Shown here: positions 2,696 to 26,186 of the stretch, in pieces | Position numbering within the stretch: position 1 is the first letter of the stretch | Layout of the letters: every line of letters begins with the position of its first letter | Source of the DNA: Chalciporus piperatus | Taxonomy: Eukaryota > Basidiomycota > Agaricomycetes > Boletales > Boletaceae | Assembly: GCA_038093975.1 (NCBI GenBank) | Contig: JBBPTG010000176.1 | Span: forward strand, 1-50,888 | Direction: 5' to 3' | DNA length: 50,888 nucleotides | The notes under the pieces: generated by a model | The model's database searches: none | Seen by the model: only the letters and a program-made list of their open reading frames with translations | Told to the model about the DNA's origin: nothing | Position numbers and translations under genes: made by a program

Positions 2696-2699
2696 ATGT

Positions 2700-2965
2700 T
2701 TGAGATAAGTGGATGTGGTGGTGGGGGAGTGGAAACTCACCTAGTAAGGCCGGCGGGGCTGTTGAGCCCTCGCTGGCCGTGTTGTTCGAGTTGGTGTTAA
2801 GGTGACTCGGAGGTGGTGGTGGTGGTGGGGGAGACTCGAGTGGCTGTTGGTGAGATGAGTGGGTGGGTCAGTGAGTGAGTAGAAACTCACTTTGCATTGC
2901 TGGCAGGGCTGTGAAGCCCTCGCCGGCCATGTTGCTGTTGTTGTTGAGGTGTGGTGTAGTGGTGT
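2700..2965. repeat. E1 left arm: hairpin repeat units
   Basis: There are two units about 150 bp apart, each with a GCCGGC-GGGCT-loop-AGCCC-GCCGGC type stem-loop (2748-2778 and about 2898-2928). A short GAAACTCAC/GTGAGT inverted pair lies between them. The arrangement is the reverse complement of the right arm at 5200-5870. Confidence 0.7.
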
Positions 2966-3003
2966 GAGACAGACTCGAAGAAGTGGCGCGGCAAGTTCAA
3001 CTT

Positions 3004-3060
3004 GGTCACGTGACTTTTTCGCGTGGATTTTTTGTCAAGTCCGAGCATTAGGGAAATGTA
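3004..3060. other. Conserved GTCACGTGAC block at arm/core boundary (E1 left)
   Basis: A perfect 10-bp palindrome GTCACGTGAC (3005-3014) is followed by a GC-rich CGCG stretch, a T-run and GTCAAGTCCGAGCATTAGGG. The same order occurs at 5101-5141 (reversed, CACATGAC), 12692-12745 and 24620-24690 (reversed). The core matches the E-box CACGTG recognised by bHLH proteins such as Cbf1. A regulatory or structural role is inference. Confidence 0.55.
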
Positions 3061-3785
3061 GCTACACTTTATTAGGATCTTCTACACTAGATAGCTACCA
3101 TATTTTTTGTACACTTGTGTATGCCTTTTTGTACACTTTCAATAGGTTTGATCTCCACAAACTTTGCTACACTTGTAACTACACACTTACTGCGCTTTTT
3201 TGTACACTTTTGCTACACTCTAACCTAATACACTTTCCCACACTTGTAACTACACATTTACTACCCTTTTTTGTACACTATTGCTACACTCAATCTAGCT
3301 ACACTTTCCTACACATTTGATTCAAGTTTTACTACGCTTTTTTGTTACACTTTGCTACACTCAATCACTACACTTGTAACTATACTTTTAGTACGCTTTT
3401 TTGTACATTTTAGCTACACTCTATCACTACACACTTTCCCACACATTTCACTACACTTTTACTACACTTTTTTGTACACTTTTGCTACACTCAATCTAGC
3501 TATACTTTCCCACACTCTTGACTACACTTTTACTACACTTTTTTGTACACTTTAGCTACACTCAATCTAGCTACACTTTCCCACACTTGGACTACACTTT
3601 TACTACATTTTTTTTGTACATTTTGCTCACTCAATCCAGCTATACTTTCCCACACTTGTAACTACACTTTTACTACACTTTTTTTGTACACTTCACTACA
3701 CTCAACCCTAATACCCTTTCCCACATTGTTAACTACACTTTTAGTACACATTTTTGTGGACTTTAGCTATAATCCATCCTATGAA
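3060..3785. repeat. TACAC satellite, about 70-75-bp period
   Basis: About ten degenerate units carry, in order, TTTTTTGTACACTTT, GCTACACTCAATCTAGC, TACACTTTCCCACACTTG and ACTACACTTTTACTACAC. The same satellite lies in the opposite orientation in E3 (24090-24600) and is repeated at the right window end. The long frames rich in Tyr-Thr-Phe are by-products of the repeat. Confidence 0.85.
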
Positions 3786-3794
3786 TGATTATAA

Positions 3795-4610
3795 AATGTC
3801 ACTAATTAGAATGACTCTATTAGATGACTGAGTAGTACTGGAGTGATTGGGTGAGCTGAGGGCTGGGTAGCTGGATAACTGGTATGACTGGTGTGACTGA
3901 AGTGACTGGATTACTGGAGTGACTGGATTACTGAGGTGACTGGATTACTGGAGTGACTTATGTGATTTATGTGACTGGGGTGACTGGAGTGACTGGATTA
4001 CTGAACCACTGAGTGACTAGATTACTGGAATACTGGAATACTGCATGACTGGAGTAATGAGACAACTGGATTGCTGGATGACTAGGGCACTGGGCTACTA
4101 GGCTACTGAGATAACTGGATGACTGGAACACTGGGCTACTGAGCTACTGAGACTACTGAAGTGACTGGATGATTGGATGACTGGGCTGCTGGGTTACTGG
4201 AACTACTGGATGACTGGATGACTGGGATGCTGGGTTACTGGAACTACTGGATGACTGAATGACTGAATGACTGGGCTGCTGAGACTACTGAAGTAACTGG
4301 ATAACTTGATGACTGGGCTACTAAGACTACTGAAGTAACTGGATAACTTGATGACTGGGCTGCTGGGTTACTGAAATGACTGGATGACTGGATGACTGGG
4401 CTGCTGGATGACTCAGACTACTGAGACTACTGGATGACTGAATGACTGAGCTACTGAAGCTACTGAAATGACTGGATGACTGGGCCACTAGGCCACTGGG
4501 TTACTAAGACTACTGAAACTACTTGATGACTGGGTGACTAGGTTACTGAAACTACTGAAACTACTGAAACTACTGGTTACTGGGCCACTGGACTACTGAT
4601 TTAACTGATC
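3795..4610. repeat. GACTG-type short-period array
   Basis: This is an irregular array of ACTGGATG, ACTGGG, CTACTG and TTACTG motifs in roughly 8-12-bp steps. The plus strand is strongly purine-plus-T biased: nearly every C sits in an ACTG context. From 4625 to 5020 the sequence becomes unique and GT-rich with no supported gene. Confidence 0.75.
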
Positions 4611-5023
4611 CAGTCATTCCAGTAACTTCAGACTTTTTGCAGTGTTGCTGATGCTGGGGTGTTAATGAGTTGTTTGAGGTGTAAAGGAGTTGTTTGGGCT
4701 GCGGATAAGTCGTGCGTTTCTCGTCGTGTTGTCGTTCGTTGCTGTTGTCGTTGTGGGTTGAGGAATGAAGGTGAGGTGGCAAGGTGAGGGTGACTCACTG
4801 CTTTCACGTAGAGCTCGTTTAGCTCGTTTCAACTCTCTGAACCCACTGACTGTTTGTACACACCTTCGCACAACCTCTGTGGCCTCGCTTGCTACTCCCT
4901 TGACTCCTTCGTTAGACAGCTCTGTGGCCTTGTCTGGCCGTGTTTCCTCGTGGCTGGGTGGGTCTTCAGTGTGTTTCAACGTGTTTTGCATGTTGGTAGG
5001 TTGTGCTTGTAGTGCTCATGTGT

Positions 5024-5065
5024 GTGTGGAAAAGCTCAGTGGTATACCGCTGAGCTTTCCCACAC
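5024..5065. repeat. 42-bp near-perfect palindrome centred on GGTATACC (E1)
   Basis: The centre is GGTATACC at 5041-5048. The 17-bp arms 5024-5040 and 5049-5065 pair with two mismatches and contain AAAGCTCAG/CTGAGCTTT and GTGTGG/CCACAC. A palindrome with the same centre and the same GTGGGAAAG/CTTTCCCAC arms lies at 12784-12823 in E2. Confidence 0.8.
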
Positions 5066-5100
5066 CTTTGCTGGTAAGGTAAGTAAGCAAGGTAAGTGGG

Positions 5101-5150
5101 TCTTGGACTTCACCAAAATTTGCGTGAGCGAGTCACATGACCGTGGTGAA
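5101..5150. other. Conserved CACATGAC block at arm/core boundary (E1 right)
   Basis: GTCACATGAC lies at 5132-5141, preceded by TTGGACTTCACCAAAATTTG. Read in reverse, this is the same block as 3004-3060, with an A-for-G change that removes the CACGTG core but still fits the looser RTCACRTG pattern. Confidence 0.5.
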
Positions 5151-5199
5151 AACTCGCCTTTTGCCTGACTTCTCTCCTGCACTTCTATCTCTACACCAC

Positions 5200-5870
5200 A
5201 CCTCAACACGTCAACAAAGCCAGCATGGGCTCAACAGCCCCGCTGGCACCCAAAGGTTAGTGATAGTCCCCAAAAGTGAGTATTTGCTCACCCACCAACC
5301 CAACCACTCACCTCGAACACAGCCGCTCAGGCTGTCTGCCCCACCACTGGCAACACCTCCCACCTCTCACTCGACATCAAAACACAGTCGGTGAGGGCTC
5401 AATAGCCCCGCCGGCATTATTCCGTGAGTTTTGCTCACCAACCACCACCACCACTTACCCCATCAAGTCTGCCCCACCAAAACCACGAACAACACGACCA
5501 GCGAGGGCTCAATAGCCCTGCCAGCAATCTCACTGGCAGGTAAGTTTTTATTCACCCACAACCACATCCACTCACCACAGAGCCTCACCACAGTCCCACC
5601 ACAAGCCGGCAAGCTCAAACAAGCTCACCACCACCTTACGACTCGAAGACGAAGCCGGCGCGGGCTCGACAGCCCGCCAGCTTCACCAGGTGAGTGTTTC
5701 TTCACCCACCGACCCAGCCGCTCACCTCGGACACAGCCGCTCGGGGCTGTTTGCCCCACCTCAACCTCCCACCTCTTCGTGCGACCACGCCAACACCTTC
5801 CCGACCCCATCTCTATCATTTCTTGAGCCCGAGTGGCTCGTGCAACAACACCAACACCTCCTCACCGACC
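5200..5870. repeat. E1 right arm: hairpin repeat units
   Basis: Four units start at about 5218, 5386, 5500 and 5648. Each has a GGGCTCAACAGCCC-like stem inside GCCGGC-like outer pairs, then GTGAGT...ACTCAC inverted pairs, then CTCACCTCG...ACACAGCCGCTCGGGCTGT. The three hairpins follow one another in the same order in each unit, although individual units are degenerate. Confidence 0.75.
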
Positions 5871-5899
5871 CAAGTCCCTCATCATTGCCCTAGCCCATT

Positions 5900-6245
5900 C
5901 TTATTGTAGTCATACATTAGTACATCACATGTAGTAGATAAACCTGCCAATGCACCCTATCTTTGATATCTATTTATTTGACCGGTGTGAAGTAAAACTG
6001 AAGGAAGGGCAGTAAATCGCTACAGAATCAGAGTCTATATAGTATTATAAGAGCTATATGTGCTTGTATAGTCCACCATTCCCTTGGAGTCTATATAGTA
6101 CTATAAAAGCTATGAGAGTTTTGGGGGGCGCTATAGAGTGCTCCATAGAGGGGACTTGCACTTTTTCCTATAAGCAATATAAATGCAATTATAGTACTCT
6201 ATAGAACTATTATAGCTATGAGAGTAAAGTTGGTTTGTCCTGATG
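5900..6245. repeat. E1 right terminal region with TATAG palindromes
   Basis: The region is AT-rich and full of short palindromic pieces such as CTATATAGTACTATA and CTATAGAGTGCTCCATAG. Read in reverse from 6245, the outer 170 bp or so matches E2 from 11672 closely by eye, ending in CATCAGGACAAACCAAC. This defines the true right end of E1. Confidence 0.8.
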
Positions 6246-6407
6246 GTGGGAGAAGATAAGGGGGACGAAGTTAAAGAGGAGACAGAAGAGATAGTAGTAG
6301 AGTCTATAGTAACAGAGGGGGTAGCGGGAGCGGACATGTTTTATCGATGAGTTTTTTGTTTGACAGAAGATGGAGATCTTGAGGAAGAAGGGAAGGCGGA
6401 TGGGTGA
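6246..6407 (-). pseudogene. 3' tail of element B polyprotein, separated by element A
   Basis: On the minus strand the frame that leaves 16022-16060 (THAKDVLENYQKA) continues here as HPSAFPSSSRSPSSVKQK and ends at a TAA near 6339. This is the Ser-rich tail after the chromodomain. Downstream minus-strand sequence (MSAPATPSVTIDS) is open but I do not assign it a product. Confidence 0.65.
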
Positions 6408-6412
6408 GCTTT

Positions 6413-6865
6413 TGTTATAGTATTTAAAAACTTTTCAAACTTTTGCCTACAACGGTATTCGAACACTGGACTTTGTCTACAACTTAGGGGTCAAGCCAGA
6501 TTCATCTTTATCCACTCCGGTAGTCCCTGTAGCATTATGTAATCTATTACATAATCAGGTCACATGACAAAGGTCCAGACTTAGATGAGTCAGCAATGAT
6601 GTCATGGCCTAGACCCTAATCCGTGCCTGGTACCTTTTCTTATAGTCGTCCCCTTTACCTTATCTATCTTTCCCTTTATGATTTCCTTATTTGGCTGTTG
6701 GTCTGTGTGCACATCTCAATAGTATATAAGTAGCCCTGTGCTTATCACAGACCCCAGTCTAATCCATTTGTGACTTCACCGTCATTAAGTTTTAGTACTC
6801 AGCATATCCTTCACAAGGTCTAGTGTGACCTAAGTCCCCGCCGTGTGTTGTGAGAAATCATAACA
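6413..6865 (+). repeat. 5' LTR of element A
   Basis: It starts TGTTATAGTATTTAAAAAC and ends GAGAAATCATAACA. It contains a TATA-like AGTATATAAGTAG near 6720-6732, a plausible core promoter. It shares TSD GCTTT with the 3' LTR and has lost several CpG dinucleotides that the 3' LTR keeps. Confidence 0.95.
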
Positions 6866-7574
6866 CTTGGATTAGACTTCAACACACCGCCCGGACTCTA
6901 GGGCCAAAGAGTTGATCCAGAACGATCGTTCGCGTACATGACACGCGGGAGACAACAACTCCATCCACTGTTGTTTATACGGTTGTCCGCCGTCAATAAG
7001 GATAATGTTGCTTCACCCCATAGTGCACTAGGGGCTCTTTCGTGATTCAAGACGTCTTGGGGTCTGTGCAAGCACTAGCCCTCTGACTGTAGACATCACA
7101 CAGGTTCTTGTGATCACCTGTAACGTCACAATTCGCCTTTTGGCATTTCACTTCTATTGGGCCAGCCTTTAGTGCCCCGTCTCTGTTACCCTCGTACGAT
7201 AGTTTTTTGTTTTTGATTCGAAGACCAGATTGAGATCATGCCCAATTGCGAAGGACGACAAGGGAAAAGCGCGTCGCCGCCCCCTTGGCTGAGTCATACG
7301 TAGAGACGTAAGCTGGCAGCACCGCCGAGGTAAAAAATAGAAAACAAAAAATAAATATATTGTATTACGATAGTTCTTTGCTGCTGCTCGAAAATAGAAG
7401 TTCGAGAGTAGTACATGTGTAAAATCCAAACAGATCTTGGGAAAATTCCTCAGAAGGTCTGCAAAGATTCCGATAAGCGTCACAGATATTATCTCCGCTC
7501 CAAAAAATACTTCCTTCGTCCTCGTGTCTGTCGTCCCCAGAGAACCTTTGGAAGATAGGGTTCAGTAAGGATTT
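6866..7574 (+). other. Element A leader between 5' LTR and gag
   Basis: The presumed primer-binding site lies directly after the LTR (CTTGGATTAGACTTCAACAC), but I cannot match it to a tRNA by eye. The rest is an untranslated leader. Minus-strand open frames here show no similarity to known proteins. Confidence 0.5.
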
Positions 7575-9191
7575 ATGTCAGTCGAGTTCTACGATCAGGA
7601 ACCAATAGATCAAGGATATCGAACACCTCCCCGTCACTTTCCATCATCATCTGAAAGTTCTCATCCTCCTACTCCCCGCCCCGAATCTCCGATGACAGAT
7701 ACCGCCGATCCCATCGCTGCCCTCACCGCCGCTCTGAAGGCGCTCATTTCAGACAATTCGGACACTGTGTCCAGAAAGGTTGCCGACCCGGGAAAATGGG
7801 ATGGTGATCGCACCAAGTTCCGTTTATGGTGAGCACAGGTGAATGCCTGGCAGTCCGTCCATACATGGAAAAACAACAAGGTTCGAGTATTAGCAGTTCT
7901 CTCACGCTTGGAAGGAAAAGCGGCTGGGTACGCCCAGATTATGATAGAAACATGGTCGCGCTTAGAGTTGTTACCACCACTGCCACCACCAGAAGTAGAA
8001 GGCGTGGTAGCACCAGAGCCGGATCGTGAACCAATGGGAATGTGAGCATGGCCAACTTGGGCAGTGTTCTCACAACTCCTCAAGGACTATTTCCAGATAG
8101 ACGTTCTCGCGCATGAGAGTCTCAGGAAATTAGAAGTATTGAAGCAGGCTGGGAAACCTGTAGATATCTTCGTCCAAGAGTTTGAGTTGTTGAAGGCAGA
8201 ATCGGAGATTGCCGATGCTCATGCGAAAGAGCTTTTGAAAAAGGCGATAGATTACAAAGTCTATTACCAAGCGCAAATCAACACCAACGTTGATGAGCAA
8301 AACTACCACAAAACGCTAGACACTTATCGAAAGTTAGGTTGTACTTTCGAGCGTATTGTGGTAGAACGTGGTGTACCAGTTTGCCAGGCACCAGCTCCCG
8401 CGCCAAGACCTTCTTCATCATATCCGTATCTCCCTCCTTGTTACCCAATTGCATCTCGCCCTCTTCCGTGTCCCCCCGCTTCGTATGCGGCTCCCCGCTT
8501 CACTCCCACAGGCACGCAGCCTGGTCGTGGAGCCCCGATGGATCTGTCGGCACAGCAAATGCCGAGATCCCCCGTTCGGGGAAACTGTTTCAATTGCGAC
8601 AAGTTAGGTCGTACATTCCAGCGAATAGTCATGGAACATGGTGCACCAGTCCGGCAGGCACCAGCTCCAGCGCCAAGGCCTTCTTCCTCGTATCCTTATC
8701 TCCCCCCTTGTTACCCGATTGCATCTCGCCCTCTTCCGCGTCCCCCCGCTTCGTATGCGGCCCCCCGTTTCACTCCCACGGGCACACAGCCTGGTTGTGG
8801 AGCCCCGATGGATCTGTCGGCACAGCAAATGCCGAGATCCCCTGTTCGGGGAAACTGTTTCAATTGCGACCAGCCAGGTTATTTTGCAAACACGTGCCCA
8901 AAGCCCCACAGGCCGCGTCAGAGACAAGTTGTTATGTGGGATCCATATTCGCAACAATATGTTGGGTCTTCCCTGCCGTTTGACAACCGGCAGATGCCCT
9001 TTGCAGGTACCATCCCTGCACCCTACCTTCCCCAATCCTCCCCCTACCCCACTGGCCCGTCCACCAGCACAAGTTACATGTCGCATCAAGCGGCATATAC
9101 AAACCAAGCAGCGGAAGCGGACTGGCGCGACCGTATTGAGTCAGAAGCCAAGGCACAGGCAGCCAAGGCTTTAAAAGGAAGCAGCCGATGA
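7575..9191 (+). pseudogene. Element A gag (capsid-nucleocapsid), two internal TGA stops
   Basis: One frame runs the whole length, starting MSVEFYDQEPIDQGYRTPP. It has an acidic/Pro-rich N-terminus, a capsid-like segment around the stops (KWDGDRTKFRLW, then VNAWQSVHTWKNNKV and FSQLLKDYFQIDV), and a Pro-rich region before the zinc knuckle. TGA codons at 7830-7832 and 8043-8045 interrupt it. A 270-bp tandem duplication (8331-8600 and 8601-8870) leaves one knuckle cut short (CFNCDKLG) and one complete in length but with Tyr where His is expected (CFNCDQPGYFANTC). The gag stop overlaps the pol start as ATGA. Confidence 0.85.
8331..8870 (+). repeat. 270-bp tandem duplication inside gag
   Basis: 8331-8600 and 8601-8870 are diverged tandem copies, each running from AAGTTAGGT to CAATTGCGAC. 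The unit length is a multiple of three, so the reading frame is kept. The copies differ at scattered sites, so the duplication is not brand new. Confidence 0.9.
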
Positions 9192-11671
9192 GAGAAATGG
9201 GTTCTCAAAGGCACGGACTTAGTTTACCAAAGGGTTGTATTAGTACCGGTCCTCATGTTTCGTTTAACAATAAATTTTCTTCTTCTTCTGAAAGGGCGTC
9301 CCTCAGTGGCGTGGCGACAGAAGTAAAACAATTCGTGCTTAATTTCCTTAAGGTAAATTATTCGAAAAAAGAAATCCCATCAAAAATACATGTAAGGAAT
9401 CAGAATCGGAAAAACGAGCTGGATCTCGTTATTACTATTATGTATGATAAAGGGGAGCAATGGAAGAAAATGGAGTTTGCCGCTCTATTGGACTCCGGCG
9501 CAACCGAAACCTTCATAGATAAATCGTTCTGTGAGAGACATGGGTTGACACTGGAAGAACTCCCTTTTCCTATTCCAGTGTACAACGCCGACGGCTCAGA
9601 GGGAGCTATAGGTGGTGTCACTCACAAGGTTTCGCTTGTTTTGGGACACAAAGGACATTTTGAGCATATGGACACTTTTGTTTCTGTACTTGGCACACAC
9701 CATATGATCATCGGCTATGATTGGCTTGAAAGGCACAACCCTGAAATCGATTGGGTAGCCAAACAAGTACGATTCACACGCTGTACGGATCAGTGCAAAG
9801 TAGTTAATTATCATTTGAATCGTTCTTTTTCTATTTGTCGAGTGTTTGAGGCGGGGCTCACCAAGAAAGTCCCAGTAGAACTCCATGAATACTTGGATGT
9901 CTTCTCAGAGCAAGAGAGTGAGTGTATGCCTACCCGAAAGGCGTGGGATCACGCAATAGATCTCAAGCCTGATTTCGTTCCAAAGAAGGGTCGGGTGATT
10001 CCGATGTCCGAACAGGAACTTGAGGACATCAAAAAGTTCATCGATAAGGAGTTATCGAAAGGATATCTTCGGCCGTCGAAATCCCCTCAAACATCTCCTG
10101 TTTTCTTTATTCCAAAAAAGGACGGTAAAAAGAGATTAGTTATGGACTATCGATACGTAAATGAGGGAACTGTCAAGAACGCTTACCCTGTTGCCCTCAT
10201 TTCTGGGCTTATCGATCAGCTAAAAGGAGCTGATATGTTTACTAAAATGGACCTACGTTGGGGTTATAATGATGTTAGAATAAAAGAAGGCGACGAATGG
10301 AAAGCGGCTTTCGTTACTCCATTCGGCGCTTACGAACCAGTAGTTATGTATTTCGGACTTACCAATTCTCCACCTACATTTCAACAGATGATGAATGATC
10401 TGTTTAGCGATCTACACGGAGTTTTGATTATTTATATCGACGATCTCATGATCTTTACATTCAGAAAATCTAGAGCAGAGCACTTAGAGATAGTTAAAAC
10501 CGTATTGTAACGTCTCAGAGAGAACGATCTTTATGTAAAACCAGAAAAGTGCAGTTTTGCAGTAGAATCCGTAGATTTCCTGGGAATGGTTATTTCCCAG
10601 AAAGGCGTAGAGATGGACAATTCAAAGGTGCAGGCTATTTTGGACTGGCCGGCGCCAACTCGGTTGAAGGGGGTTCAGTCCTTTTTAGGATTGGCTAACT
10701 TCTATCGATGTTTCATTCAGGGCTTCGCTGACATTGCTCGTCCCTTAAATGACCTTACCAAAAAGGACACACCATACCGGTGGGGACCGGAGCAACAGCA
10801 AACTTTTGATAGGCTGAAACAGCAATTCACTACCGCTCCGCTTTTGGCTTATCCTGACCGCTCTAAAGAAGTCAGAGTGGAAACGGACGCTAGTGATATT
10901 GCAACGGGAGCTGTGCTCTCGGTTAAATGCAATGATGGCCTCTGGAGGCCTTGTGCTTTCATTTCCCATTCCTTTAGTTCTGCCGAGAAGAACTACCCGG
11001 TTTATGACAAGGAGCTTCTAGCTGTCATACGGGCTTTGCAGGAATGGAGGCATTATCTAATGGGTCGAGAACATTTCGAGATCTGGACAGATCACAAGAA
11101 TCTCGAATATTGGAAATCTCCCCAAACTCTGAGCCCACGTCAAGCACGCTGGAACGCGTTGCTCTCAGAGTATAATTACTCGATTATTTATAAACCGGGT
11201 TCTACAAATGGAAGGGCAGATGCTTTATCTCGTCGAGAAGATCACGGAGAAGCAGATCCCGACCATAACAAAAATATTACGGTACTTCCCGCTTCCGTTT
11301 TTATTAATACGGTTACTCTTTCTTCACCTATTTATGACGAAATACAAAACGAATCAGAAAAAATAAAAAATGATACGGTAGATGGCTTCGTTTTTGACGA
11401 GGGGTCTATAGTATTTAAAAATGATAAAAACAAGGTTTTTGTACCTATTTCCTTATGTACTAAACTTCTTACAATACTCCATGATTCTCCTATTGGTGGC
11501 CACGGTGGTCAAGGACGTACATTACATCTTGTTACTCATTATTTCTCGTGGCCTGGTGTCACAAAGGACGTTAAAACCTACGTAGAACATTGTCAGACGT
11601 GCGCCCTCACGAAGGGAAAGTCAATGGCACAAGCTGGCAAATTAATTCCCCTTCCGGTTCCGAAAGTGGAA
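9188..11671 (+). pseudogene. Element A pol, first part: protease, RT, RNase H, integrase zinc domain
   Basis: The ATG at 9188 overlaps the gag stop in the -1 frame. Domains in order are an aspartic protease (LLDSGATETFID), reverse transcriptase (FTKMDLRWGYND, FGLTNSPPTFQQMM, IIYIDDLMIF), RNase H (ETDASDIATGAVL, FEIWTDHKNLEYW) and the integrase H2C2 segment (HDSPIGGHGG to HCQTC). A single TAA at 10508-10510 interrupts the same frame between RT and RNase H. The frame then enters E2 at 11672. RT and RNase H key residues look intact, so this copy decayed late. Confidence 0.9.
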
Positions 11672-11686
11672 CATCAGGAAAAACCA

Positions 11687-11960
11687 ACTTTACTCTCATA
11701 GCTATAATAGTTCTATAGAGTACTATAATTGCATTTATATTGCTTATAGGAAAAAGTGACAAGTCCCCTCTATGGAGCACTCTATAGTGCCCCCCAAAAC
11801 TCTCATAGCTTTTATAATACTCTATAGACTCCAAAAGAATCAACAGCTATTGAGCTCTATAATAGCTTTTATAATACTATATAGACAGTACTAATTCTGC
11901 AGTGATTTACTGCCCTTTTTTGATTTCGCTTCACACCGGTCAAAGATAGATAGGAAAAAA
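11687..11960. repeat. E2 left subterminal region with TATAG palindromes
   Basis: This is nearly the reverse of 5985-6230 in E1. It contains CTATAATAGTTCTATAG, GAGTACTATAATTG and CTATAGACTCC pieces that form many overlapping short inverted repeats. The right end of E2 (14200-14384) has similar but not identical motifs (TATAGTACTCTATG, TATATAGTAGTATAG). Confidence 0.7.
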
Positions 11961-12009
11961 TCACTTGTATTGGGAAGTCTATCACTACAATGTGGTGGGG
12001 ATGGGGCTG

Positions 12010-12610
12010 AGGTGATACGTCCAAGTCAATGGTCAGTGGGTTGGTTGGTGAGTAGACACTCACCTTGCCAGTGTGAGGCCAGCGGGGCTGTTTTTTTGGC
12101 GTCAAGGTGGGAGGTGGTGGTGGGGCGAACAGCCCAAGCAGCTGTGTTAGAGGTGAGCGGTTGGATTGATGGGTGAGTGAACACTCACCCTTTTGGGTGC
12201 CAGTGGGCCTATTGACTCGTGTTAGAGGTGAGCAGCTGGGTTGGTGGGTGCACAAACACTCACTTCTGGGTGCTGGCTGGGCTGTTGAGCCCACGCCGGC
12301 CTTGTGTTGTTCGAGTGGGGCTGAGGTGGGAGGTGGTGGTGGGCAGACAGCCCCGAGAGGCTGCTAACGAGGTGAGTGGATGGGATGGTGGGTGAACTGG
12401 CAGTGGGCACTCACATCGTGATGCCGGCGGGGGCTGTTGAGCCCGCGCCGGCTTTGTTTTTCCAGCTGAGGGTGGGTGAGGTGAGAGGTGGTGATGGTGG
12501 TGAGGCCAACAGCCCAAGCGGCCGCGAACGAGGTGAGCGGATGGTGTGGTGGGTAAGTTTTCACTTACATCATGATGCCGGCGGGGCTGTTGAGCCCACG
12601 CCGGCATTGT
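12010..12610. repeat. E2 arm: about five hairpin repeat units
   Basis: Units occur at about 12065, 12195, 12270, 12420 and 12575. Each has GCCGGCGGGGCTGTTGAGCC-type stem-loops, GGTGAGT...ACTCACC inverted pairs and AACAGCCCnAGCGGCTG pairs. The orientation matches the left arm of E1 and is the reverse of the E3 arm. Confidence 0.75.
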
Positions 12611-12691
12611 TGACGTGTTGAGGGTGTGGTGTACTAGAGATAGAAAGTGGTTAGAGAAACAAATTGAAAAGGTTGACTGGCGAGTGCACCA

Positions 12692-12745
12692 CAGTCACGT
12701 GACCTACTCGCGGCGGATTTTTGTGAAGTCCAATGCTACTAACTT
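12692..12745. other. Conserved GTCACGTGAC block at arm/core boundary (E2)
   Basis: The perfect palindrome GTCACGTGAC (12694-12703) is followed by CTACTCGCGGCGGATTTTTG and TGAAGTCCAATGCTA. This is the same order as at 3004-3060. Confidence 0.6.
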
Positions 12746-12783
12746 AGTTTACTAAGCTACTAGTACCACGAGTATCCTAAGGC

Positions 12784-12823
12784 TGTGGGAAAGTGCTGCG
12801 GTATACCGCAGCGCTTTCCCACA
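12784..12823. repeat. 40-bp palindrome centred on GGTATACC (E2)
   Basis: The centre is GGTATACC at 12800-12807, and the 16-bp flanking arms pair with one mismatch. It shares its centre and the GTGGGAAAG/CTTTCCCAC outer parts with the E1 palindrome at 5024-5065, but the middle pairs differ (CTGC/GCAG here, CTCAG/CTGAG there). Confidence 0.85.
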
Positions 12824-13029
12824 TGCACATACGAGTCGACGAAGCCCACAGACGAGCGAAAGCACCCAACGATGCTGAAAACGCGCCCAGCCGCGAAGAA
12901 ATGCGACGGAACAAATCAAATGGCAGCGTAAACGGGAGGGAGAAGCAGAGAGTCAAGGCGAGCGAATCGAGTGACTGTCGAAGCTCGAAAAGAGCGAGTC
13001 GAGAGAACTGTGAGTACTACAACTTGTCG

Positions 13030-13965
13030 AACCTGGCCGTGAGCTCACCTCACCCTCACCCTCGTCCTTCACCCTCTCACCCTCACCCTCACCCTCGGCC
13101 AACAACAACAAGAGACGCGACGACACACGATCACGTGTGTCATCTCGTCTCTCGTCCTCACCCTGTCCCCGCTCGACCGACAACAACATGAGAAACGCCA
13201 TTATGTCGTTTCTCGTGTCATTCTCGTCCTTCACCCTCAACCTCACCCTCAACCTCACCCTCGTCCTTCACCCTCTCACCCTCACCCTCACCCTCACCCT
13301 CGCCCTCGCCCTCGCCCTCGCCCTCGCCCTCACCCTCGTCCTTCACCCTCTCACCCTCACCCTCGCCCTCGCCCTCGCCCTCGCCCTCACCCTCGTCCTT
13401 CACCCTCTCACCCTCACCCTCGCCCTCGCCCTCGGCCGCCTCACCCTCACCCTCACCCTCGTCCTTCACCCTCTCACCCTCGGCCGACGACGACGAGAGA
13501 CGCGACGACACACGTGATCGTGTGTCGTCTCGTCTCTCGTCCTCACCCTGTCCCCACTCAACCGACAGCGACAATGAGAAACAACATAACGCATGCGTGC
13601 GTTATGTCGTTTCTTGTGTCGTTCTTGTCCTTCACCCTCCACCTCACCCCGACCGACGACAACGACAACGAGAAAAGACCCGACGCACGCAATCATGTGT
13701 GTCGTGTGTTTCCTCGTCGTCCTCTCGTTTCCTCGTCCTTCACCCTCTCACCATCACCATCATCTCGCCCTCATCCTCGCCCTCCACTGACGACGACGCC
13801 GACGAGAGACGGTGCGACACACGTGAGCACGTGTGTTGCGTCATTTCTCGTTCTCGCCGTCTTGTCTTGTCTTGTTCTCATCCTCATTCTCATCCTCCCT
13901 CACCCTCGACTGACGACGACGATGACACGCGATCACGTGTCGTCGTCGTCTCTCGTTCTCGTTCG
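13030..13965. repeat. E2 core: chained palindromes separated by CACCCT/CGCCCT tracts
   Basis: Imperfect palindromes lie at about 13111-13152, 13189-13220, 13491-13542, 13571-13620, 13675-13735, 13800-13850 and 13910-13965. Several are centred on ATCACGTG or CACGTGATC. Others pair GAGAAAC with GTTTCTC around a centre such as GCATGC. Between them run pyrimidine-rich tracts, longest at 13225-13490, with CACCCT and CGCCCT hexamers. Confidence 0.8.
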
Positions 13966-14399
13966 TAATTTATGAGAACCGTGTAAACCTGAGCAAAAAT
14001 AGTACAGATTTTTGCCAGAATGCATATGCCCTAATTATAGTTGTCTGTGTCTACAGCTGCTACGCGAGGAGGTGTCATCAGGTGTCAGCTACGTTGAAAC
14101 CTATTAAACTTGAAATAAGTGTGAAGTAGTGGAGTTAGCTTGTTCTGCACTACGACTCCATGAAAGTTGAAGACGACAAGTAAATATGCATATCAGACCT
14201 TATGGGAGTTATTATAGAACTTTATAGTACTCTATGTCACTTTCAAAAAGATATATAGTGATATGAGAGTTCCCATAGTACTTTATATGTGCTCTACGTC
14301 ACTTTCAGAATAATATATAGTAGTATAGAAGGTCCTATAGCAACCATAGCTCTATATAGATAAGACCCCTTCTATATAGGGAAATGGTTTTTCCTGATG

Positions 14400-15551: not shown

Positions 15552-15562
15552 AGAGGGGATAG
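15550..15562 (+). other. Polypurine tract of element A
   Basis: AGAGAGGGGATAG lies directly before the 3' LTR, where the plus-strand primer of LTR retrotransposons is expected. It overlaps the pol stop codon. Confidence 0.7.
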
Positions 15563-16016
15563 TGTTATAGTATTTAAAAACTTTTCAAACTTTTGCCTAC
15601 AACGGTATTCGAACACTGGACTTTGTCTACAACTTAGGGGTCAAGCCGGATTCATCTTTATCCGCTCCGGTAGTCCCTGTAGCATTACGTAAACTATTAC
15701 ATAATCAGGTCACGTGACAAAGGTCCAGACTTAGATGAGTCAGCAATGATGTCATGGCCTAGACCCTAATCCGTGCCTGGTACCTTTTCTTATAGTCGTC
15801 CCCTTTACCTTGTCTATCTTTCCCTTTATGATTTCCTTATTCGGCTGTTGGTCTGTGCACACTTCTCAATAGTATATGAGTAGCCCTGTACTTATCACAG
15901 ACCCCCAGTCTAATCCATTTGTGACTTCACCGTCATTAAGTTTTAGTACTCAGCATATCCTTCACAAGGTCTAGTGTGACCTAAGTCCCCGCCGTGTGTT
16001 GTGAGAAATCATAACA
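15563..16016 (+). repeat. 3' LTR of element A
   Basis: 454 bp, TGTTATAG...ATAACA, followed by target duplication GCTTT (16017-16021). It retains GTCACGTGAC where the 5' LTR has GTCACATGAC. Confidence 0.95.
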
Positions 16017-16021
16017 GCTTT

Positions 16022-19000: not shown

Positions 19001-19560
19001 TTCTCATAGGCACGGTTAAGGAAGGTGGATTCGGTCTCGGAGTCCATGTAGTCATAGAGGTGTTTATCGACTTCCGGGGTCACGTAAGAGCGTCGAGGAG
19101 GAGGGGTAGGTCCGCAGCATGTATGGTATATCACTTCTTTGACTCATCGATGGACTCTGATAGCGAGAGGGTTCGTCGGCGGCAGTCGATGTTGGGTTAG
19201 CTTTTTCAAGCCATGGGAGACCTAGGATAACATTTTTGTTTCCACAGTTCATGACGTGGAAGATTACTTCTTGTGCAATTCCTTCGATGTCAAGGAAGAG
19301 GGTGGTGGTGAAGAGTATCATCCCACTTTTGTTTGCGGTCTGGTCGACGTTTCGGACTCAAATAGGGGTTTCGAGTCAGGGGGTTGAGATTCAATTCTTT
19401 CGTATAAAGCCCCAATCAATACAGGAGATGTCTGCACCACTATCAATGAGGGTGTGGGTTTCGACGGCTTTCATCGTGTGCGAGGGAACAATAATCTGTA
19501 TAGGAATTTGCATAGAGCGCTTTCACGACTTTACAAGTACAGGTGCACACGTGACTGGGG
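16022..19560 (-). pseudogene. Element B pol: protease to integrase/chromodomain
   Basis: On the minus strand, in order: an aspartic protease (THTLIDSGADISCIDW, about 19420-19470), RT (17783-18976), RNase H (YDRELLAVIRALKTWRHFL), the H2C2 zinc segment (HDHPTAGHSG to CATC), and an integrase core with D (SCDLITNLP), D (ISDRGPQF) and E (HPQSDGETEHVN). Chromodomain pieces follow in another frame up to 16022. Stops and frameshifts separate RT from RNase H and integrase from chromodomain. RT motif A reads [10 protein letters not shown]: the catalytic Asp is replaced by Asn (codon 18506-18508). The second RT motif is normal (YMDD). B is a different family from A. Confidence 0.85.
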
Positions 19561-19587
19561 AAGCTTGCGTTGGCAGAGCTTCCCGGT

Positions 19588-20840
19588 CTAAAAACCCTTT
19601 GTGACAAAGGCTATTTTACGAACGATGGTCTCATCTTCGTCATCATCTATCTCGATCAACGAGGGAATTTCTTCCTCAACCTTCTGAACCTTCTTCGGGG
19701 TTTTCTGGTTCAAGGAGAACTCTGGGCAGGCGTTGGACCGATGTCCAGCTTTCCTGCAGCGGAAGCAGAGTCCCTTCTCCTGGCAGCGTTTCCGCTCTTC
19801 AGGAGTGAGTTTGGAGATACGGATGGCATCGACGTCCATGGCATTGGGGTCCCTGGCAGGGGTGGAGTGATTGGCAGAGGAGAACGGACGGAATGGTTTG
19901 GCAGGGTTGCGATTGCGATTAGCGATCTCATTGGCGTGTTCCCATTGGGTCTGGAATTAGGTGGTGCGCTTGTACCAATCGTCGATTGTGGTAGGGACGG
20001 TATCCATGCTGTTGACTCATCTCACAAGGGAGATCGGTATTCCCGCAGAGAAGTATCCGATTAGGACGTTGTTATCGATAATGCCGGACAAGGCAACTTG
20101 ATTCTGGAAACTCGAAATGAATTCCGAGAGAGAGGGAGAATATTCTCTGTTCTTGAGAGGCTTCATTCGTTTGGTGGAAAGCCAGGCGACGGCGTTTCCT
20201 ATGATATCATGGTTTTTGAACGCGGTTTCGAAGTTGGTGATGAATTGAGCCCAGATTCCCATTGTGACAGTGGCACCAGTGATGGCCTTTCGGCGGAAGG
20301 TGGCAGCCCAAGTAGCTGCTGAACCTTTGGACATATAGAATAGCGCAAAGGCGATCTTCTTGGGGTCTGTGTTGTACACATCACCATTGACAGTGAGATA
20401 GAATTGGATGGAGTTCATCCAGGCAGTGCTTTTCGCGAAGGAGCCATCAAAGGCATCTGGGGCTCCGATGCGGAGTTCGGTGGGTTTGGAAGAAGACATG
20501 GGGTTTACAAAGCTAGGAGGTGGAGGTACTTGATACCCTCCTGGTGCAAACACGGATGCGGGAAGGGAAGGAGTGGAGAAAGCTGAGGTTTGTGGGGGAG
20601 CAGGTGACACAGGGAACTGTGGAGCTCTTCGGGATATTGGGGTCGGTGACGGTGGTGTTGGTGCCCTTGGGATAGTTACAACTGAGGAAAATTTGTGGAA
20701 GAGGTGAAGGGTTTTTTCTTGTTCCTCTTGAGTGGTGATTGGTTCGTCATAGAGATCAGAGGTGTCGTAGGGGTTAGAGGAATGTTCCTCTTCAGGTGAG
20801 CCTGAGTCAGAGGATTCGGGGTTCTATGGATTAGCGGTCT
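19588..20840 (-). pseudogene. Element B gag: capsid and zinc knuckle
   Basis: The N-terminus is acidic and Pro/Ser-rich (PESSDSGSPEEEHSSNPYD). The capsid-like region starts KPTELRIGAPDAFDGSFAKS and includes WAATFRRKAI and FKNHDIIGNAVAWL. A CCHC knuckle follows (CFRCRKAGHRSNAC). In-frame stops occur at 20017-20019 (TGA), 19957-19959 (TAA) and near 20825 (TAG). The start codon is not identified because the TA-element boundary lies close by at 20862. Confidence 0.8.
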
Positions 20841-21135
20841 CTCGTGGGGGGCCCCAACGAGTAGTGTTTTAAAGTCCGGTCTGGTCCGGTCTTTTTCCTT
20901 ATTAGGAAGGCGACCGGACCGAGACCGGTTTTTTTAGTTAATTAATTCAACAAGACTGGACCAAAACCGATAAAAACCGGTCTTTTGGCGGTTGCAACCG
21001 GTTTTTCGCTTAGCATGGGAGAAGCCAAACATAGTACCGGTTGGTGGCTATAAATCGGTCCCTGGGTCAAGCGAAACGGTTCACACGCCACAGAGATATG
21101 AGCATTTCAAAACAGCATGTTTTTTGTAGTGATAC

Positions 21136-21605
21136 TGTTATGATCGTCCCATTCTTTCCTTTCCCATTACCTTGTACTAAGTCCTAGTCGCCGGTTCGAG
21201 TCCTGCCTAGGCCACTCGTTTCTTACTTCACCTTAGTCAGCGAATATTCCCTCATGTTCTTTCACCTTCTATGCTTCGTCATCGCTGACTCGTACGCTTA
21301 CTGAGCATGACTCATTCTTATTCGTCATAGCTCATTCTTACTCATTCCGGCTCCTTCTATGCCTGCCCTTAACTTGTTCCTTTAGCTATATAAACCCTCG
21401 AAGTTTCTCCTGTAACCTTAAGTTAGACCTACACAATCTAGCCTGGTTACTCCTCGCTTCCTTGAACCCTCTGAGAGTCACCGTCCCACTCTTGAACAGA
21501 CACTAGGCCTTAACGTGGACATCCCATCGTTAGGCTACCCTGAAACCCTTGTCTTTGACTAGGCTTTTGTGTCTATGCTTTGACCTACCCGGTACAAGCA
21601 TAACA
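21136..21605 (+). repeat. Solo LTR with GATAC target duplication
   Basis: It runs TGTTATGATCG...AAGCATAACA, 470 bp. GATAC at 21131-21135 and 21606-21610 flanks it. Removing it rejoins MITE sequence seen intact at 44280-44290, which confirms the insertion. It contains a TATA-like CTATATAAACC near 21384 and an exact pol III B-box-like GGTTCGAGTCC at 21193-21203. Confidence 0.85.
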
Positions 21606-22369
21606 GATACATCAGATATTATCAAGTTACATGTGAAGTCAAGACCAATCAGAGACTCAATACTCGTGGCTGGGCCGTGTGTGAAGGAAGGAAAAGGAAA
21701 CACTACACTTGCCAGTGTTGGGTCCCGCTCGGCAATCTGCCACTAATGACCGGGATTCAGAACTCCGAAGCCAATCAAAGAGACAGAAAGACCGACCGGA
21801 AGCCAGGGCAACGAGAACACCCAAAACCCAACAGGACGAAGGACACGTCGAGGACAGGCAACAGGTCAAGTCTGGATGTGTGAGATGCAACCCAAAACAG
21901 AAGACGAGGACGAGGGAGCAACAATGTATAAGTATCGAAACGTATAAACGAGTGTTCAACAGATGAGGTACAATGGATACACGAAATATGCCCACAGTTA
22001 AGAGCGAGGTAAATTAGGCAGAATCGCAGGTAAGGAAGAGATGTGCCCGCCTAGCAGTTCAACATGGGCAGGTGCGATCTCCTCGATGAAGCGCCAATAG
22101 CGCAGGAAAGCGTCAGAACGCCAACGACCCAATAATTAACTGCTGAGATCACCCAAATTAGGTAAATAACCCCCCAATGTTAGGGTTTGATAATTACCTG
22201 TCAAGACTCCTTAACAACCATCTGTGGCTATTTTGCTTTGCACTCCCTTGTATTTTTGCTGTATGAATATTTCTTTGCTTTTCTAGCGTTTTTCACTAGA
22301 AAGTGCATAAAAAGAAAAGTCCAATATAGTGCATAAAAACGGCCACGGAGCGCTGTGGGGGGTGAATGA

Positions 22370-22688
22370 GGAAGTAACTTTGCCCCTGCAGTTAGTCCAT
22401 TCCATAGCACAATAACATGATTTCAATTGTTTTCTAAAAGAGCTCTAAATAGATAGGTCAGCCTACATCAGCGCAACTACACAGATGACCCCCTAATGTT
22501 ACGTGCTCCAGGTCATCCCCAATAAACCCACTTGATATCCCCTTGATCACTTTTTCAATTAGAGCTCAAATTCTTACCGCATAAGAATCTCTTTGCCTTT
22601 TCATCTGTTTTAGAAAACATTTAGAAAACAATCAAGATCACATTATCATGCTATGGAACAGACAACTCCCAGAGGCAAAGTCATTTCC
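22370..22688. mobile_element. Inverted-repeat MITE-like insertion
   Basis: Terminal inverted repeats of about 70 bp, imperfect, begin GGAAGTAACTTTGCC on the left and GGAAATGACTTTGCC on the right (reversed). Both contain TTCCATAGCA and ATTGTTTTCTAAA. No coding content and no clear target duplication. Confidence 0.6.
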
Positions 22689-23056
22689 ATGTCAACCGGT
22701 TGCAACCGATGAAAAAGACCGAAAAAGACCAAAGAATGGTTTTTTGCGGTTTGGGTTCAATTAGACCGACATTTATGAATCAAAAAAACCAGTCTCAGTT
22801 CAGTCTTTTCAAAAACCGCAAAAAGACCAGACTGAACCAGACTTTTAAACTCTATTTTTGCAAGTCACCTTGAGGTTTATGTCGCTGATCTCTGCTCCCT
22901 ATTTCACCTTCAGCCAGCAGCTAGATCTATATTTTTCTGAGTATTTATATGCATTAAATGCATAGTCCCTTTCATCACTGATATATGAACTTACCTGTTT
23001 TGCCCCTTTGAACTTGTAATGCACACTTCTTGTGTCCCACGTGATTATAATTTGCC

Positions 23057-23697
23057 TTGTATTTAACATTGTATTCATTGATCATGTCCTTTCAACTTCT
23101 TTGTCTGCTTTCTCAACCCCCGGTAAGTGTTGTTTTACCATCATGGTATATGCTTTCATTTACTCCCTTTCTAGCATATATACCATGTCTGGGCTATTTG
23201 AATGAGGCGTGTCTCCTGCCTCGACCATATCTGCAAGCTCATCACTGTCTCAAGTCTCTTCATCGTCAATATCGAGAACTCACTCATCATCACTTATCAC
23301 CTCAGAGCTTGATCAATTCAACTCCCAGTCTTCCCCCGATATACATATCATCTTCCCTTTCCAGTCATTACCCTACGTCCCGCTTGACAGTACCCTGATC
23401 GCCTCGCATACTGTGACATGGCTATCCCGTATCCAGCAAGTTTGTGAAGTCTGTTATGTTCTTCGCGAACCTCGTCCGATCTCGTCGAAATGCTTCCTGG
23501 CAGCAGGCAGTGGGAATGGGATGACCATCACAAACGAGAAGCTGAAAGATGTCCTTGACGCCTGCTTCATCCGAGTACTTCCTATGATAGTTTTCGACGA
23601 CAGCTGTCTTATTCCATCGGCCGCGTCATGCCACAAGACACAGAACCGATGTCGGAAATTTCCAAGAGCCATGCTAAGGCATTGCCATGACTCTTAA
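23057..23697 (+). CDS. Possible hypothetical gene, weakly supported
   Basis: Two overlapping open frames (23057-23398 and 23209-23697) may be exons joined by an intron. The second is Ser-rich at its N-terminus and contains DACFIRVLPMIVFDDSCL. I recognise no domain. 22854-23056 and 23698-23860 contain nothing I can call. Confidence 0.2.
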
Positions 23698-24089
23698 TGC
23701 GTAATTTCCCACCCCCCCATTTTTAGACAAGCCAAAGGCACCTACTTTTCATGAACACGTCATTATCATGCGCGGCCAGGGCCATTACAAGGCCATTACA
23801 AGTGTCACTTATACGTTATCATTACCTGATAAGGATATACCGTAACGATCAATGACCTTGCATCAGGAAACCCCTCCCTTGGGTAATTGTTGAAAATTGT
23901 TGAAAATACCAGATATTCTTGTGAGTACTTGAAAATTTCAAGTATTGTCATATATTATCAGGATTTTATGATATTAGTTGGGAATGACTGATCACCCATA
24001 AGTGGACATTAGTTGATATTTGTGATAATTCATGATATTCAATGATATTCATGGCTAATCACCAAAATGTGCTCACAAGTTGAGGAAAG

Positions 24090-24600
24090 TAGAAAAGAAG
24101 CATTGTAAAAGTGTACAACAAGCATACTAAGTGTAGTCAAAAGTGTGTAGCTCAAGTGTACAAAAAAGCGTACTAAAAGTGTAGTCAAGAGTGTGGGAAA
24201 GTGTAGGATAAATGAGTGTAGCTAAAGTGTACAAAAAAGCGTAGTAAATGTGTAGTTACAAGTGTGGGAAAGTGTATAAGGATAGAATGTGGCTAAAGTG
24301 TACAAAAAAGTGTACTAAAACTGTAGTCAAAAGTGTGGGAAAGGAGTGAAATAGAGTGTAGCTAAAGTGTACAAAAAAGCGTAGTAGATGTAGTCAAGTG
24401 TATTAGCATCTGAGTGTGGCTGTGTACAAAAAAGCATAGTGAAACTGTAGTCAAAAGTGTGGGAAAGAGTGTTGTGATTGAGTGTAGCCAATGTGTACAA
24501 AAAAGTGTACTAAAAGTGTAGGAAAGTACACTAGGATTGACTGTAGCTAAGATGTACCAAAAAGCGTACACAAGTGTACCAAAAGGGTAGTAGTTGTCTA
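24090..24600. repeat. TACAC satellite in reverse orientation (E3)
   Basis: About seven degenerate units contain AAAGTGTACAAAAAAGCGTA, TGTAGTCAAAAGTGTGGGAA and GAGTGTAGCT. This is the reverse complement of the array at 3060-3785. Confidence 0.85.
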
Positions 24601-24619
24601 CTCTAGAAATTCCTAATAA

Positions 24620-24690
24620 AGTGTAGTGCTATTTCCCTGATGTTTGGACTCGACGAAATTCCGCGCGCGAGCAGGTCACGTGACCGTGTT
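24620..24690. other. Conserved GTCACGTGAC block at arm/core boundary (E3)
   Basis: GTCACGTGAC lies at 24675-24684. Upstream are CTATTTCCCTGATGTTTGGA and CTCGACGAAATTCCGCGCGC. Read in reverse this is the same order as in E1 and E2, including the AGGGAAAT that follows the block in E1. Confidence 0.6.
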
Positions 24691-24739
24691 GAACTCGCCG
24701 CGTAAGCATTTTCGACTCCAAGTCTCTCACTACTTCCCT

Positions 24740-25530
24740 ACTACTACCTACTACCCCACCTCAACCCAGCACGAACACACAGCCGGCGAGGGCTCAACAG
24801 CCCTGCCAGCTGTCAAAGGTAAGGTTTTACTTACCTACTGACCCCCCCACTCACCTCGCCAACAGCCACTCCAGCTGTTTGCCCCATCACCACCTTTGAC
24901 TCAAACTCAAATAAAACAGCCGGTGTGGGCTCAACAGCCCCGCCGGCATCACGAGGTTCGTATCTTTTCACTCACCATCACCACCTCTCACCTTGCCAAC
25001 AGCCACTCGGGCTGTTTGCCCCACCACCACCTCACCCTCACCTTTGACTCGAACACGAACAAAACAGCCAGCGAGGGCTCAACAGCCCCGCCGGTCCTTG
25101 ACCGTGAGTTTTCACTCACCCCCACCACATCCACTCACCTCGAACACAGCCGGTCGGGCACCACTACCTCACCTCAACTCACTCTCAAACAACATGGCTG
25201 GCATGGGCTCAACAGCCTCGCCGGCATCACCAGGTGAGTTCTCGCTCACCACCACCACCACTACTCACCTCATAAACAGGCGCTCGCCACCAGCACCCCC
25301 CACATCTACCACGACCTACCAGAAACATGGCCGGCAAGGGCTCAACAGCCCCACCTGCATTGCTATGTGAGTTTTTACTCACCACCACCACCACATCTAC
25401 TCACCTTGCCTCACCCTCGCTCGTGCATGCCAGTGGCAGCCACACCCTGACCCTCCCTCATCTCACCATCACTGGTAGGTACATCATCATCATCATCATC
25501 TCATCATCACTGACATCACCATCACCACTG
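24740..25530. repeat. E3 arm: five hairpin repeat units
   Basis: Units lie at about 24781, 24917, 25067, 25194 and 25329, roughly 130-150 bp apart. Each carries GGGCTCAACAGCCC within GCCGGC-type outer pairs, then GTGAGTTTTCACTCACC, then CTCACCT...ACAGCC...GGGCTGTTTGCCCC. This is the cleanest arm in the window. Confidence 0.8.
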
Positions 25531-26186
25531 TCCTCAGGCTAACAGCAACATTCAGGTGGGTACTCATTCATCACCATGGTAGCTACTGTATATATGTAGT
25601 ATGAGATCTGTAGTATATAGCTTCCTTGAATACAATTATTCAAACTCTTTCTTATGACTGGTGTAAAGGAAATGGGAAGAAATAACAGTGGAATAAGGCT
25701 ATTATTATGCACTAATTATCAAGTATTATCAACTGATACTTGAAGATCATCAAGATTAATTGGGGGGGCCGGATAATTATCCAGAACCGCTATAAATCAG
25801 ATAATTGTCAGGATTTTCGAAATTTGCTGAAAATCTATCCTATTTCCACAGTATTTTCAACAATTTCCAACAATTATTCAGAGGAGGGGTTTCCTGATGT
25901 GGTGTGATAAGATATTATCATGGCAGAGTTTTCCATTAGAACACATTGTCATGGTGAGCCGTCCATGCGAATGGAACCCTCTGCCATGCCATTCCTCTGA
26001 GGATGTCTTGATCATCTCACTTTCCATTGTCACGAGCTCTGGAATCATGGGATGGAATTCATTGCAATTATATATATTTTACAGTAGATGCAGACCACAA
26101 TAAAACTACGGCAATCATATGCTACTATTCCCTCGCATTTGGGATAACATGGGCACCAGCAGAGGCAGCCCCAACGTGATGAGGAT

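What the first reader, a model, noticed from the sequence alone, without database searches (positions are those of the whole stretch)
2696..25899. A family of noncoding elements built from hairpin-unit arms (E1, E2, E3)
Seen: three elements with CATCAGGA-type inverted termini contain arms of units that each carry three stem-loops in the same order: GCCGGC/GGGCT...AGCCC/GCCGGC, GTGAGT...ACTCAC and AGCC...GGCT. The arms turn inward toward different cores. None has a credible protein. Inference: the repeated secondary structure is maintained for a function such as replication, recombination or RNA folding, because base changes in some units look paired.
Basis: partly seen in the sequence, partly recalled or inferred. 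Interest (0 to 1): 0.85.

Follow-up and report, generated by a model that had tools for sequence, protein, structure and literature searches.

The report
Non-autonomous Plavaka transposons sharing noncoding cassette
The three "hairpin elements" are copies and pieces of protein-less jumping DNA in a mushroom-type fungus, most likely moved by a known transposase (Plavaka), and their hairpins are repeats inside a noncoding cassette that has passed between element families, not a structure clearly kept by paired base changes.

Summary
The elements and repeated units are real, but the reading changes. E2 (11672-14399) and E3 (23861-25899) are complete inverted-repeat elements ending CATCAGGA...TCCTGATG. 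"E1" is not one element: 2696-4653 is a truncated copy of another family (end CATCAGCAACACTGCAAAAAG) and 4654-6245 is half of an E2-type element, so its inward-facing arms belong to two abutting elements. Of 20 TIR-paired copies, 12 have an exact 2-bp target duplication and all carry units in one orientation only. CATCA...TGATG ends with 2-3 bp duplications are the published hallmark of PlavakaB transposons. This genome has at least 135 Plavaka transposase matches; a 6.6-kb copy with such ends encodes the transposase, and 170 bp at one end are 98% identical to arm-bearing copies. Best reading: non-autonomous PlavakaB elements. Units fold well, but compensatory change overall is not clearly above shuffles (one short stem excepted); stem changes are mostly CpG transitions. 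Unexpectedly, families with unrelated ends share an interior: E3 and L040 are 90% identical over 0.75 kb of array while neither pair of ends matches. Each unit carries intron-like signals. The cassette's role is unknown; the autonomous copy lacks it.

The parts
2696..4653 (-). E1a: truncated copy of the CATCAGCAACACTGCAAAAAG-type element, reverse orientation; TIR at 4653, broken inside its unit array at 2696
   Evidence: TIR matches the complete 2561-bp copy on C66, flanks AT/AT; break against gypsy at 2695/2696
4654..6245 (+). E1b: half of an E2-type element (units 5227-5760, TIR at 6245), abutting E1a
   Evidence: 5923-6245 is 85% identical to the E2 end; boundary at 4653/4654
11672..14399 (-). 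E2: complete non-autonomous PlavakaB-like element, 2728 bp, TIRs CATCAGGAAAAACC, flanks AA/AA, inserted in gypsy pol
   Evidence: sister gypsy copy without the insert at 1660-1720
23861..25899 (+). E3: complete non-autonomous PlavakaB-like element, 2039 bp, CATCAGGAAACCCCTCC ends, flanks TG/TG
24776..25420 (+). E3 unit array (5 units: GC-rich hairpin, GTNNGT...CTCAC...YAG segment, AGCC/GGCT hairpin)
12270..12620 (-). E2 unit array (3 clear units, further degenerate ones down to about 12030)
5206..5765 (+). E1b unit array (4 units)
2696..2950 (-). E1a unit array remnant (2 units)
24675..24684 (+). E3 GTCACGTGAC palindrome at the head of the unit array
12694..12703 (-). E2 GTCACGTGAC palindrome
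3005..3014 (-). E1a GTCACGTGAC palindrome
24108..24600 (+). E3 array of A-rich repeats, period 71 (AGTGTA/GTGTGGGAAAG motifs)
3126..3769 (-). E1a array of the same 71-nt repeats
   Evidence: matches the E3 array in inverse orientation at 83%
3871..4608 (-). E1a ACTGG-type 8-9 nt repeat array next to its TIR

Best explanation
E1a, E1b, E2 and E3 are copies or fragments of several non-autonomous DNA transposon families of the PlavakaB type in an agaricomycete-like fungus. Shown: CATCA..TGATG ends, 2-bp target duplications in most paired copies, hundreds of dispersed ends, and a transposase-coding Plavaka element with the same kind of ends in the same genome. Inferred: a PlavakaB transposase recognises the short ends in trans and moves these protein-less elements by cut-and-paste. 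The hairpin units lie in a noncoding cassette (GTCACGTGAC block, then the unit array, in most families preceded by an A-rich 71-nt array) that is shared between families whose ends do not match, so interiors and ends have been exchanged. The units change in number by local tandem duplication and decay by CpG transition (inferred). They are not a general need of the transposase, because the autonomous copy lacks them. Constraint on them looks more like primary sequence than pairing.
For: Ends and duplications: 12 of 20 TIR-paired copies have an exact 2-bp duplication, about 1.25 expected if bases were equally frequent; C66 copy AT/AT. PlavakaB hallmark CATCA..TGATG and 2-3 bp (PMC12730594, section read). 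Transposase: at least 135 PF18759 matches here, none in 14 control genomes. Of 21 sites of one 21-nt CATCAGGA end, 15 lie 1527-1528 bp past the 3' end of a Plavaka match. C85:103991-110562, 6572 bp, has CATCAGGAAAAACCTC ends, TA/TA flanks and a 725-aa ORF matching Plavaka at 4e-87; 170 bp at one end are 98.2% and 98.8% identical to arm-bearing L048 and L061. Numbers: 258 sites of CATCAGGAAAAMMC, 254 of CATCAGCAACACTGCAAAAAG with reversed controls 0, of which 30 pairs among the 100 listed, median 3090 bp. No unit array in the autonomous copy. Exchange: E3 and L040 arrays 89.6% identical over 747 bp with no match between their ends on either side; L055 interior 81.8% to L049 over 1.46 kb but its ends match L040's, not L049's. 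CpG pattern.
Against: 8 of the 20 paired copies have no 2-bp duplication. E2 differs from its sister empty site by a further 5 nt. The transposase partner of E2, E3 and the CATCAGC family was not found: at loose scoring E3's ends match the autonomous copy at 64-76%, while E2, E1b, the C66 copy, L040 and L055 do not match it. PF18759 does not by itself separate PlavakaA from PlavakaB; the assignment rests on the ends. Movement was not observed.
Confidence: 0.88

Rival explanations
1. The unit arrays are conserved RNA structures: a transcribed structured RNA (or a hairpin-recognised replication/recombination site) kept by selection on base pairing.
For: Nine of ten chosen window stretches fold better than nearly all shuffles; the GTGAGT/ACTCAC stem has 20 both-side cells vs 10.1 shuffled; percent paired and both-side cells of the whole structure are a little high (31 and 34 of 500 shuffles).
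Against: Number of covarying pairs, pair types and score not above shuffles; outer first stem WC 386 vs 379.3, both-side cells 7 vs 7.6, third stem 213 vs 205.9 (197 of 2000); the first loop is nearly as conserved as its stem (85-97% vs 93-97% in 72 of 74 units chosen by their other half); 22 of 33 second-stem variants not re-paired; no Rfam match in the window; the autonomous relative lacks them.
Confidence: 0.1
2. The cassette is an outward-reading noncoding transcription unit: A-rich array and CACGTG block as promoter, units as small exons separated by 35-67 nt introns.
For: 66 of 74 units have GTNNG, CTNAY and YAG in order; +1/+2 (57 of 63 GT) and +5/+6 (59 of 63 GT or GC) are kept while +3/+4 vary; the CACGTG block averages 68% identity across nine copies against 40% at the array-side ends.
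Against: Units are related by descent and were chosen by likeness to the consensus, so the signals are not independent; predicted exon lengths are mostly not multiples of three; one array ORF had no homologue; two introns read off the transposase gene are longer (59 and 61 nt); some E2 units lack the YAG; no RNA data. The block comparison preselects the 10-nt palindrome.
Confidence: 0.25
3. The unit and 71-nt arrays are binding sites for a transposase or host protein, as in the subterminal arrays of CACTA elements; hairpins arise because motifs (AACAGCC, ACTCACC) occur in both orientations.
For: Short motifs repeated in direct and inverse orientation (read by eye); conserved across families; halves conserved singly.
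Against: The autonomous copy whose end is near-identical to arm-bearing elements has no such arrays; the array in E3 is about 480 bp from the TIR and in one orientation.
Confidence: 0.2
4. KDZ or another superfamily moves them.
For: 75 KDZ matches in the genome.
Against: Reported KDZ duplications are 7-8 bp (PMC12730594) or 4-8 bp (PMC12810828), against 2 bp here; ten fetched KDZ loci of 75 matches show no CATCAGGA end within the 1.5 kb held on each side.
Confidence: 0.04

Closest known systems
PlavakaB transposons (CMCT clade, Agaricomycetes; PMC12730594)
   Same: CATCA..TGATG ends, 2-bp duplications, a Plavaka transposase with such ends in the same genome
   Different: These copies encode no transposase and carry a repeated noncoding cassette shared between families with unrelated ends
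Non-autonomous DNA transposons / large MITEs in general (recalled)
   Same: Short TIRs, no protein found, high copy number, fairly uniform length (about 1.9-3.1 kb)
   Different: Long internal tandem arrays with three stem-loops per unit; not simple deletion derivatives of the one autonomous copy read here
CACTA/EnSpm elements with subterminal motif arrays (recalled)
   Same: Same broad clade as Plavaka; repeated motifs in both orientations
   Different: Ends are not CAC..GTG; array internal and in one orientation

Membership tests
PlavakaB transposons | Termini 5'-CATCA..TGATG-3' | tested here: met
   definition from PMC12730594
PlavakaB transposons | 2 or 3 bp target duplication | tested here: met
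   12 of 20 paired copies exactly 2 bp, 8 none; AT on C66, TA on C85
PlavakaB transposons | Encodes a Plavaka transposase | tested here: not met
   No Pfam match in the three E2/E3 ORFs tested, so non-autonomous; a same-ended copy on C85 does encode it
PlavakaB transposons | Transposase falls in the PlavakaB branch of the Plavaka tree | not tested
   No tree was built; the named relatives listed are Agaricomycete proteins with the Plavaka domain, best near-full-length 62% identity
PlavakaB transposons | Mobilised in trans by the transposase | not testable with these tools
   needs a transposition assay
KDZ transposons | 7-8 bp (4-8 bp in two Cryptococcus elements) target duplication | tested here: not met
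   figures
CACTA/EnSpm proper | CAC..GTG ends | tested here: not met
   definition
Conserved structured RNA family | Compensatory base changes above controls | tested here: inconclusive
   Not above shuffles for pairs, types and score, none in the first stem; excess in the short second stem
Conserved structured RNA family | Match to a described Rfam family | tested here: not met
   window only, gathering threshold
Spliced transcript | 5' and 3' splice signals with branch site | tested here: inconclusive
   66 of 74 units; no RNA evidence

The most novel reading that the evidence does not exclude
A noncoding cassette (CACGTG block and intron-bearing hairpin units, often with an A-rich 71-nt array) passes between PlavakaB families with unrelated ends and acts as an outward-reading, spliced noncoding transcription unit that helps its carriers, for example by resisting silencing or driving neighbours, so that selection acts on the cassette more than on the ends. 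The exchange itself is supported; the transcription and benefit are not tested.
Probability: 0.12. Interest if true: 0.7.

Novelty: new variant of a known kind. Interest (0 to 1): 0.42.

Why it matters
It links a puzzling hairpin repeat to a recently described fungal transposase clade and finds a same-ended, transposase-coding copy in the same genome. The shared cassette shows that noncoding interiors and transposon ends have been recombined between families, and it offers a direct test of what such cargo does. It also shows how CpG decay in palindromes can look like compensatory change.

Tried and rejected
RNA-structure maintenance was tested three ways; not supported overall, with the exceptions told above. 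Protein coding in the arrays: long frames exist; predicted exons are mostly out of phase, and one array ORF gave 158 candidates, none at E 0.001. KDZ as mover: set aside on duplication size. C160 was first thought to be an autonomous element carrying the arms; a second copy (C168) matches it only up to the Plavaka end, so the two are adjacent or nested. C66 was first read as an array inside a transposase intron; the TIRs and AT/AT flanks showed an insertion. A protein search with the transposase listed Agaricomycete and unnamed metagenome proteins, none close enough to name the species. Literature; no paper on non-autonomous Plavaka elements with such units appeared in those listings, which cover only the held open library. 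Papers seen: PMC12730594 abstract, passages and section 3.2; PMC12810828 and PMC9674265 passages; others listings only.

Biases and dropped rows: the unit set was chosen by the inner first stem (GGGCTCAACAGCCC, up to 2 substitutions), which inflates that stem; one search used units chosen by their other half. Ten of the 73 references were left out of alignment A1 by eye before aligning (odd or near-duplicate looking), without a fixed rule. The nine copies were picked by me and need the palindrome within one substitution. Genome counts are lower bounds (40 of 310, 40 of 351 and 123 of 211 candidates scored), and pair counts rest on the first 100 listed sites.
Full report
Setting. The window is a whole contig (C176) of a 35.5-Mb, 484-contig genome. 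It carries Ty3/gypsy chromodomain elements and a fungal kinase; the named nearest relatives of the Plavaka transposase found here are Agaricomycete proteins.

Anatomy. E2 runs 11672-14399 and E3 23861-25899, each bounded by CATCAGGA...TCCTGATG. E2 splits a gypsy copy whose sister has no insert at that place; its flanks read AA/AA, with a further 5-nt difference from the sister. E3 flanks read TG/TG. E1 is a composite. Sequence 2696-4653 is the reverse of another family whose complete 2561-bp copy on C66 has CATCAGCAACACTGCAAAAAGTCTG ends and AT/AT flanks inside a Plavaka gene; in the window it is cut off at 2696 against gypsy DNA. Sequence 4654-6245 is half of an E2-type element.

A dispersed family. 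The terminal 329 bp of E2 have 29 matches; the E3 arm has 59, with 40 of 310 candidates scored; the C160 arm has 62, with 40 of 351 scored. CATCAGGAAAAMMC occurs 125+133 times against 1+0 for the reversed control, CATCAGCAACACTGCAAAAAG (one mismatch allowed) 121+133 against 0. Among the first 100 listed sites of the latter, 30 pair, median 3090 bp, one of them only 86 bp. Of the 40 arm places, 22 lie on contigs covered by that list; 21 of these have such an end within 900 bp on the array side and 14 lie inside a listed pair. Among the 100 sites listed, 26 form inverted pairs 976-2786 bp apart. Of 20 distinct TIR-paired copies held, 12 show exactly 2 bp duplicated, 8 none, and all have units in one orientation only.

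The mover. PlavakaB elements are defined by CATCA..TGATG ends and 2-3 bp duplications (PMC12730594, section 3.2 read). The genome has at least 135 PF18759 matches (123 of 211 candidates scored) and none of 14 control genomes rings. One 21-nt CATCAGGA end occurs 21 times (one mismatch allowed): 15 lie 1527-1528 bp past a Plavaka 3' end, 3 within 0.4-2.0 kb, 3 have no match on the contig. Two copies are 99.8% identical over 445 bp, to within one base of that end, and then part. C85:103991-110562 has both ends, TA/TA flanks and a 725-aa Plavaka ORF. Its first 170 bp match the ends of arm-bearing L048 and L061 at 98.2 and 98.8%. It has no unit array: one hairpin match at up to 3 substitutions and one two-copy 21-nt direct repeat. 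So the units are cargo of non-autonomous copies, not a general need of the transposase.

The units. Order and stem-loops are conserved. In-register identity of the E3 and L040 arrays (90%) against off-register (64-72%) shows an inherited array, while the C160 array has spacings 142, 147, 147, 159 and 132 with near-identical units, a recent local amplification. Pairing is not what is mainly conserved: see the counts, and the CpG tally, 92 C>T/G>A and 20 other changes in 575 cells at CpG columns against 15 and 28 in 1015 cells at other G/C columns. The GTGAGT/ACTCAC stem is the exception, with 20 both-side cells against 10.1, in a few lineages.

The shared cassette. By their outer 150 bp the seven copies compared fall into four end groups (E3, L048, L049; L040, L055; C66; E2) with no match between groups on either side at loose BLAST scoring. 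Their interiors cross those groups. E3 and L040 arrays are 89.6% identical over 747 bp, and L055 is 81.8% identical to L049 over 1.46 kb although its ends go with L040. So ends and interiors have been recombined. The order is A-rich 71-nt array, GTCACGTGAC block, units; the E2-type copies looked at have one motif of the A-rich array, and E2's best matches to other families cover only the block and units. Across nine chosen copies the CACGTG block averages 68% identity and the first unit 62%, against 36% before the block and 40% at the array-side end (shuffled 18-23%). Units have intron-like signals (66 of 74), varying at +3/+4 and constant at +1/+2 and +5/+6, but the lengths between them are mostly out of phase, so a coding gene is unlikely and a spliced noncoding transcript remains a guess.

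Verdict. The kind of mover is well supported, the individual partner of E2 and E3 is not identified, and the role of the cassette is open.

Noticed in passing
1-3418 and 47446-50888: The two ends of the contig are 98.8% identical over 3.4 kb, so part of E1a appears twice; this may be allelic overlap, a tandem duplication or an assembly effect.
   Followed up: partly
12780-12822: E2 has a near-perfect palindrome of about 40 nt (GTGGGAAAG...GGTATACC...CTTTCCCAC) also present with varied arms in E2-type copies (12 distinct sequences); a few arm changes are two-sided, others not.
   Followed up: partly
20860-22860, 41340-41990, 44280-44570: Other repeats with AGTGTTTnAAAGTCC-like ends, seen by eye, apparently another short-TIR element family.
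   Followed up: no
29998-30414, 35177-35601, 39131-39559: Three stretches of about 410-425 bp, 97-100% identical, the middle one inverted, near a Pol_BBD ORF at 28154-29539; possibly LTRs.
   Followed up: no
L053 and L083: Arm-bearing copies sit inside Plavaka genes on C235 (TT/TT) and C66 (AT/AT), i.e. these elements insert into relatives of their presumed mover.
   Followed up: partly
42550-43134: A stretch 93% identical to DNA beside the C160 arm array; unidentified repeat.
   Followed up: no
13020-13980: The non-unit side of E2 is a CACCCT/CGCCCT tandem array with interspersed palindromes, unlike the unit arrays.
   Followed up: no
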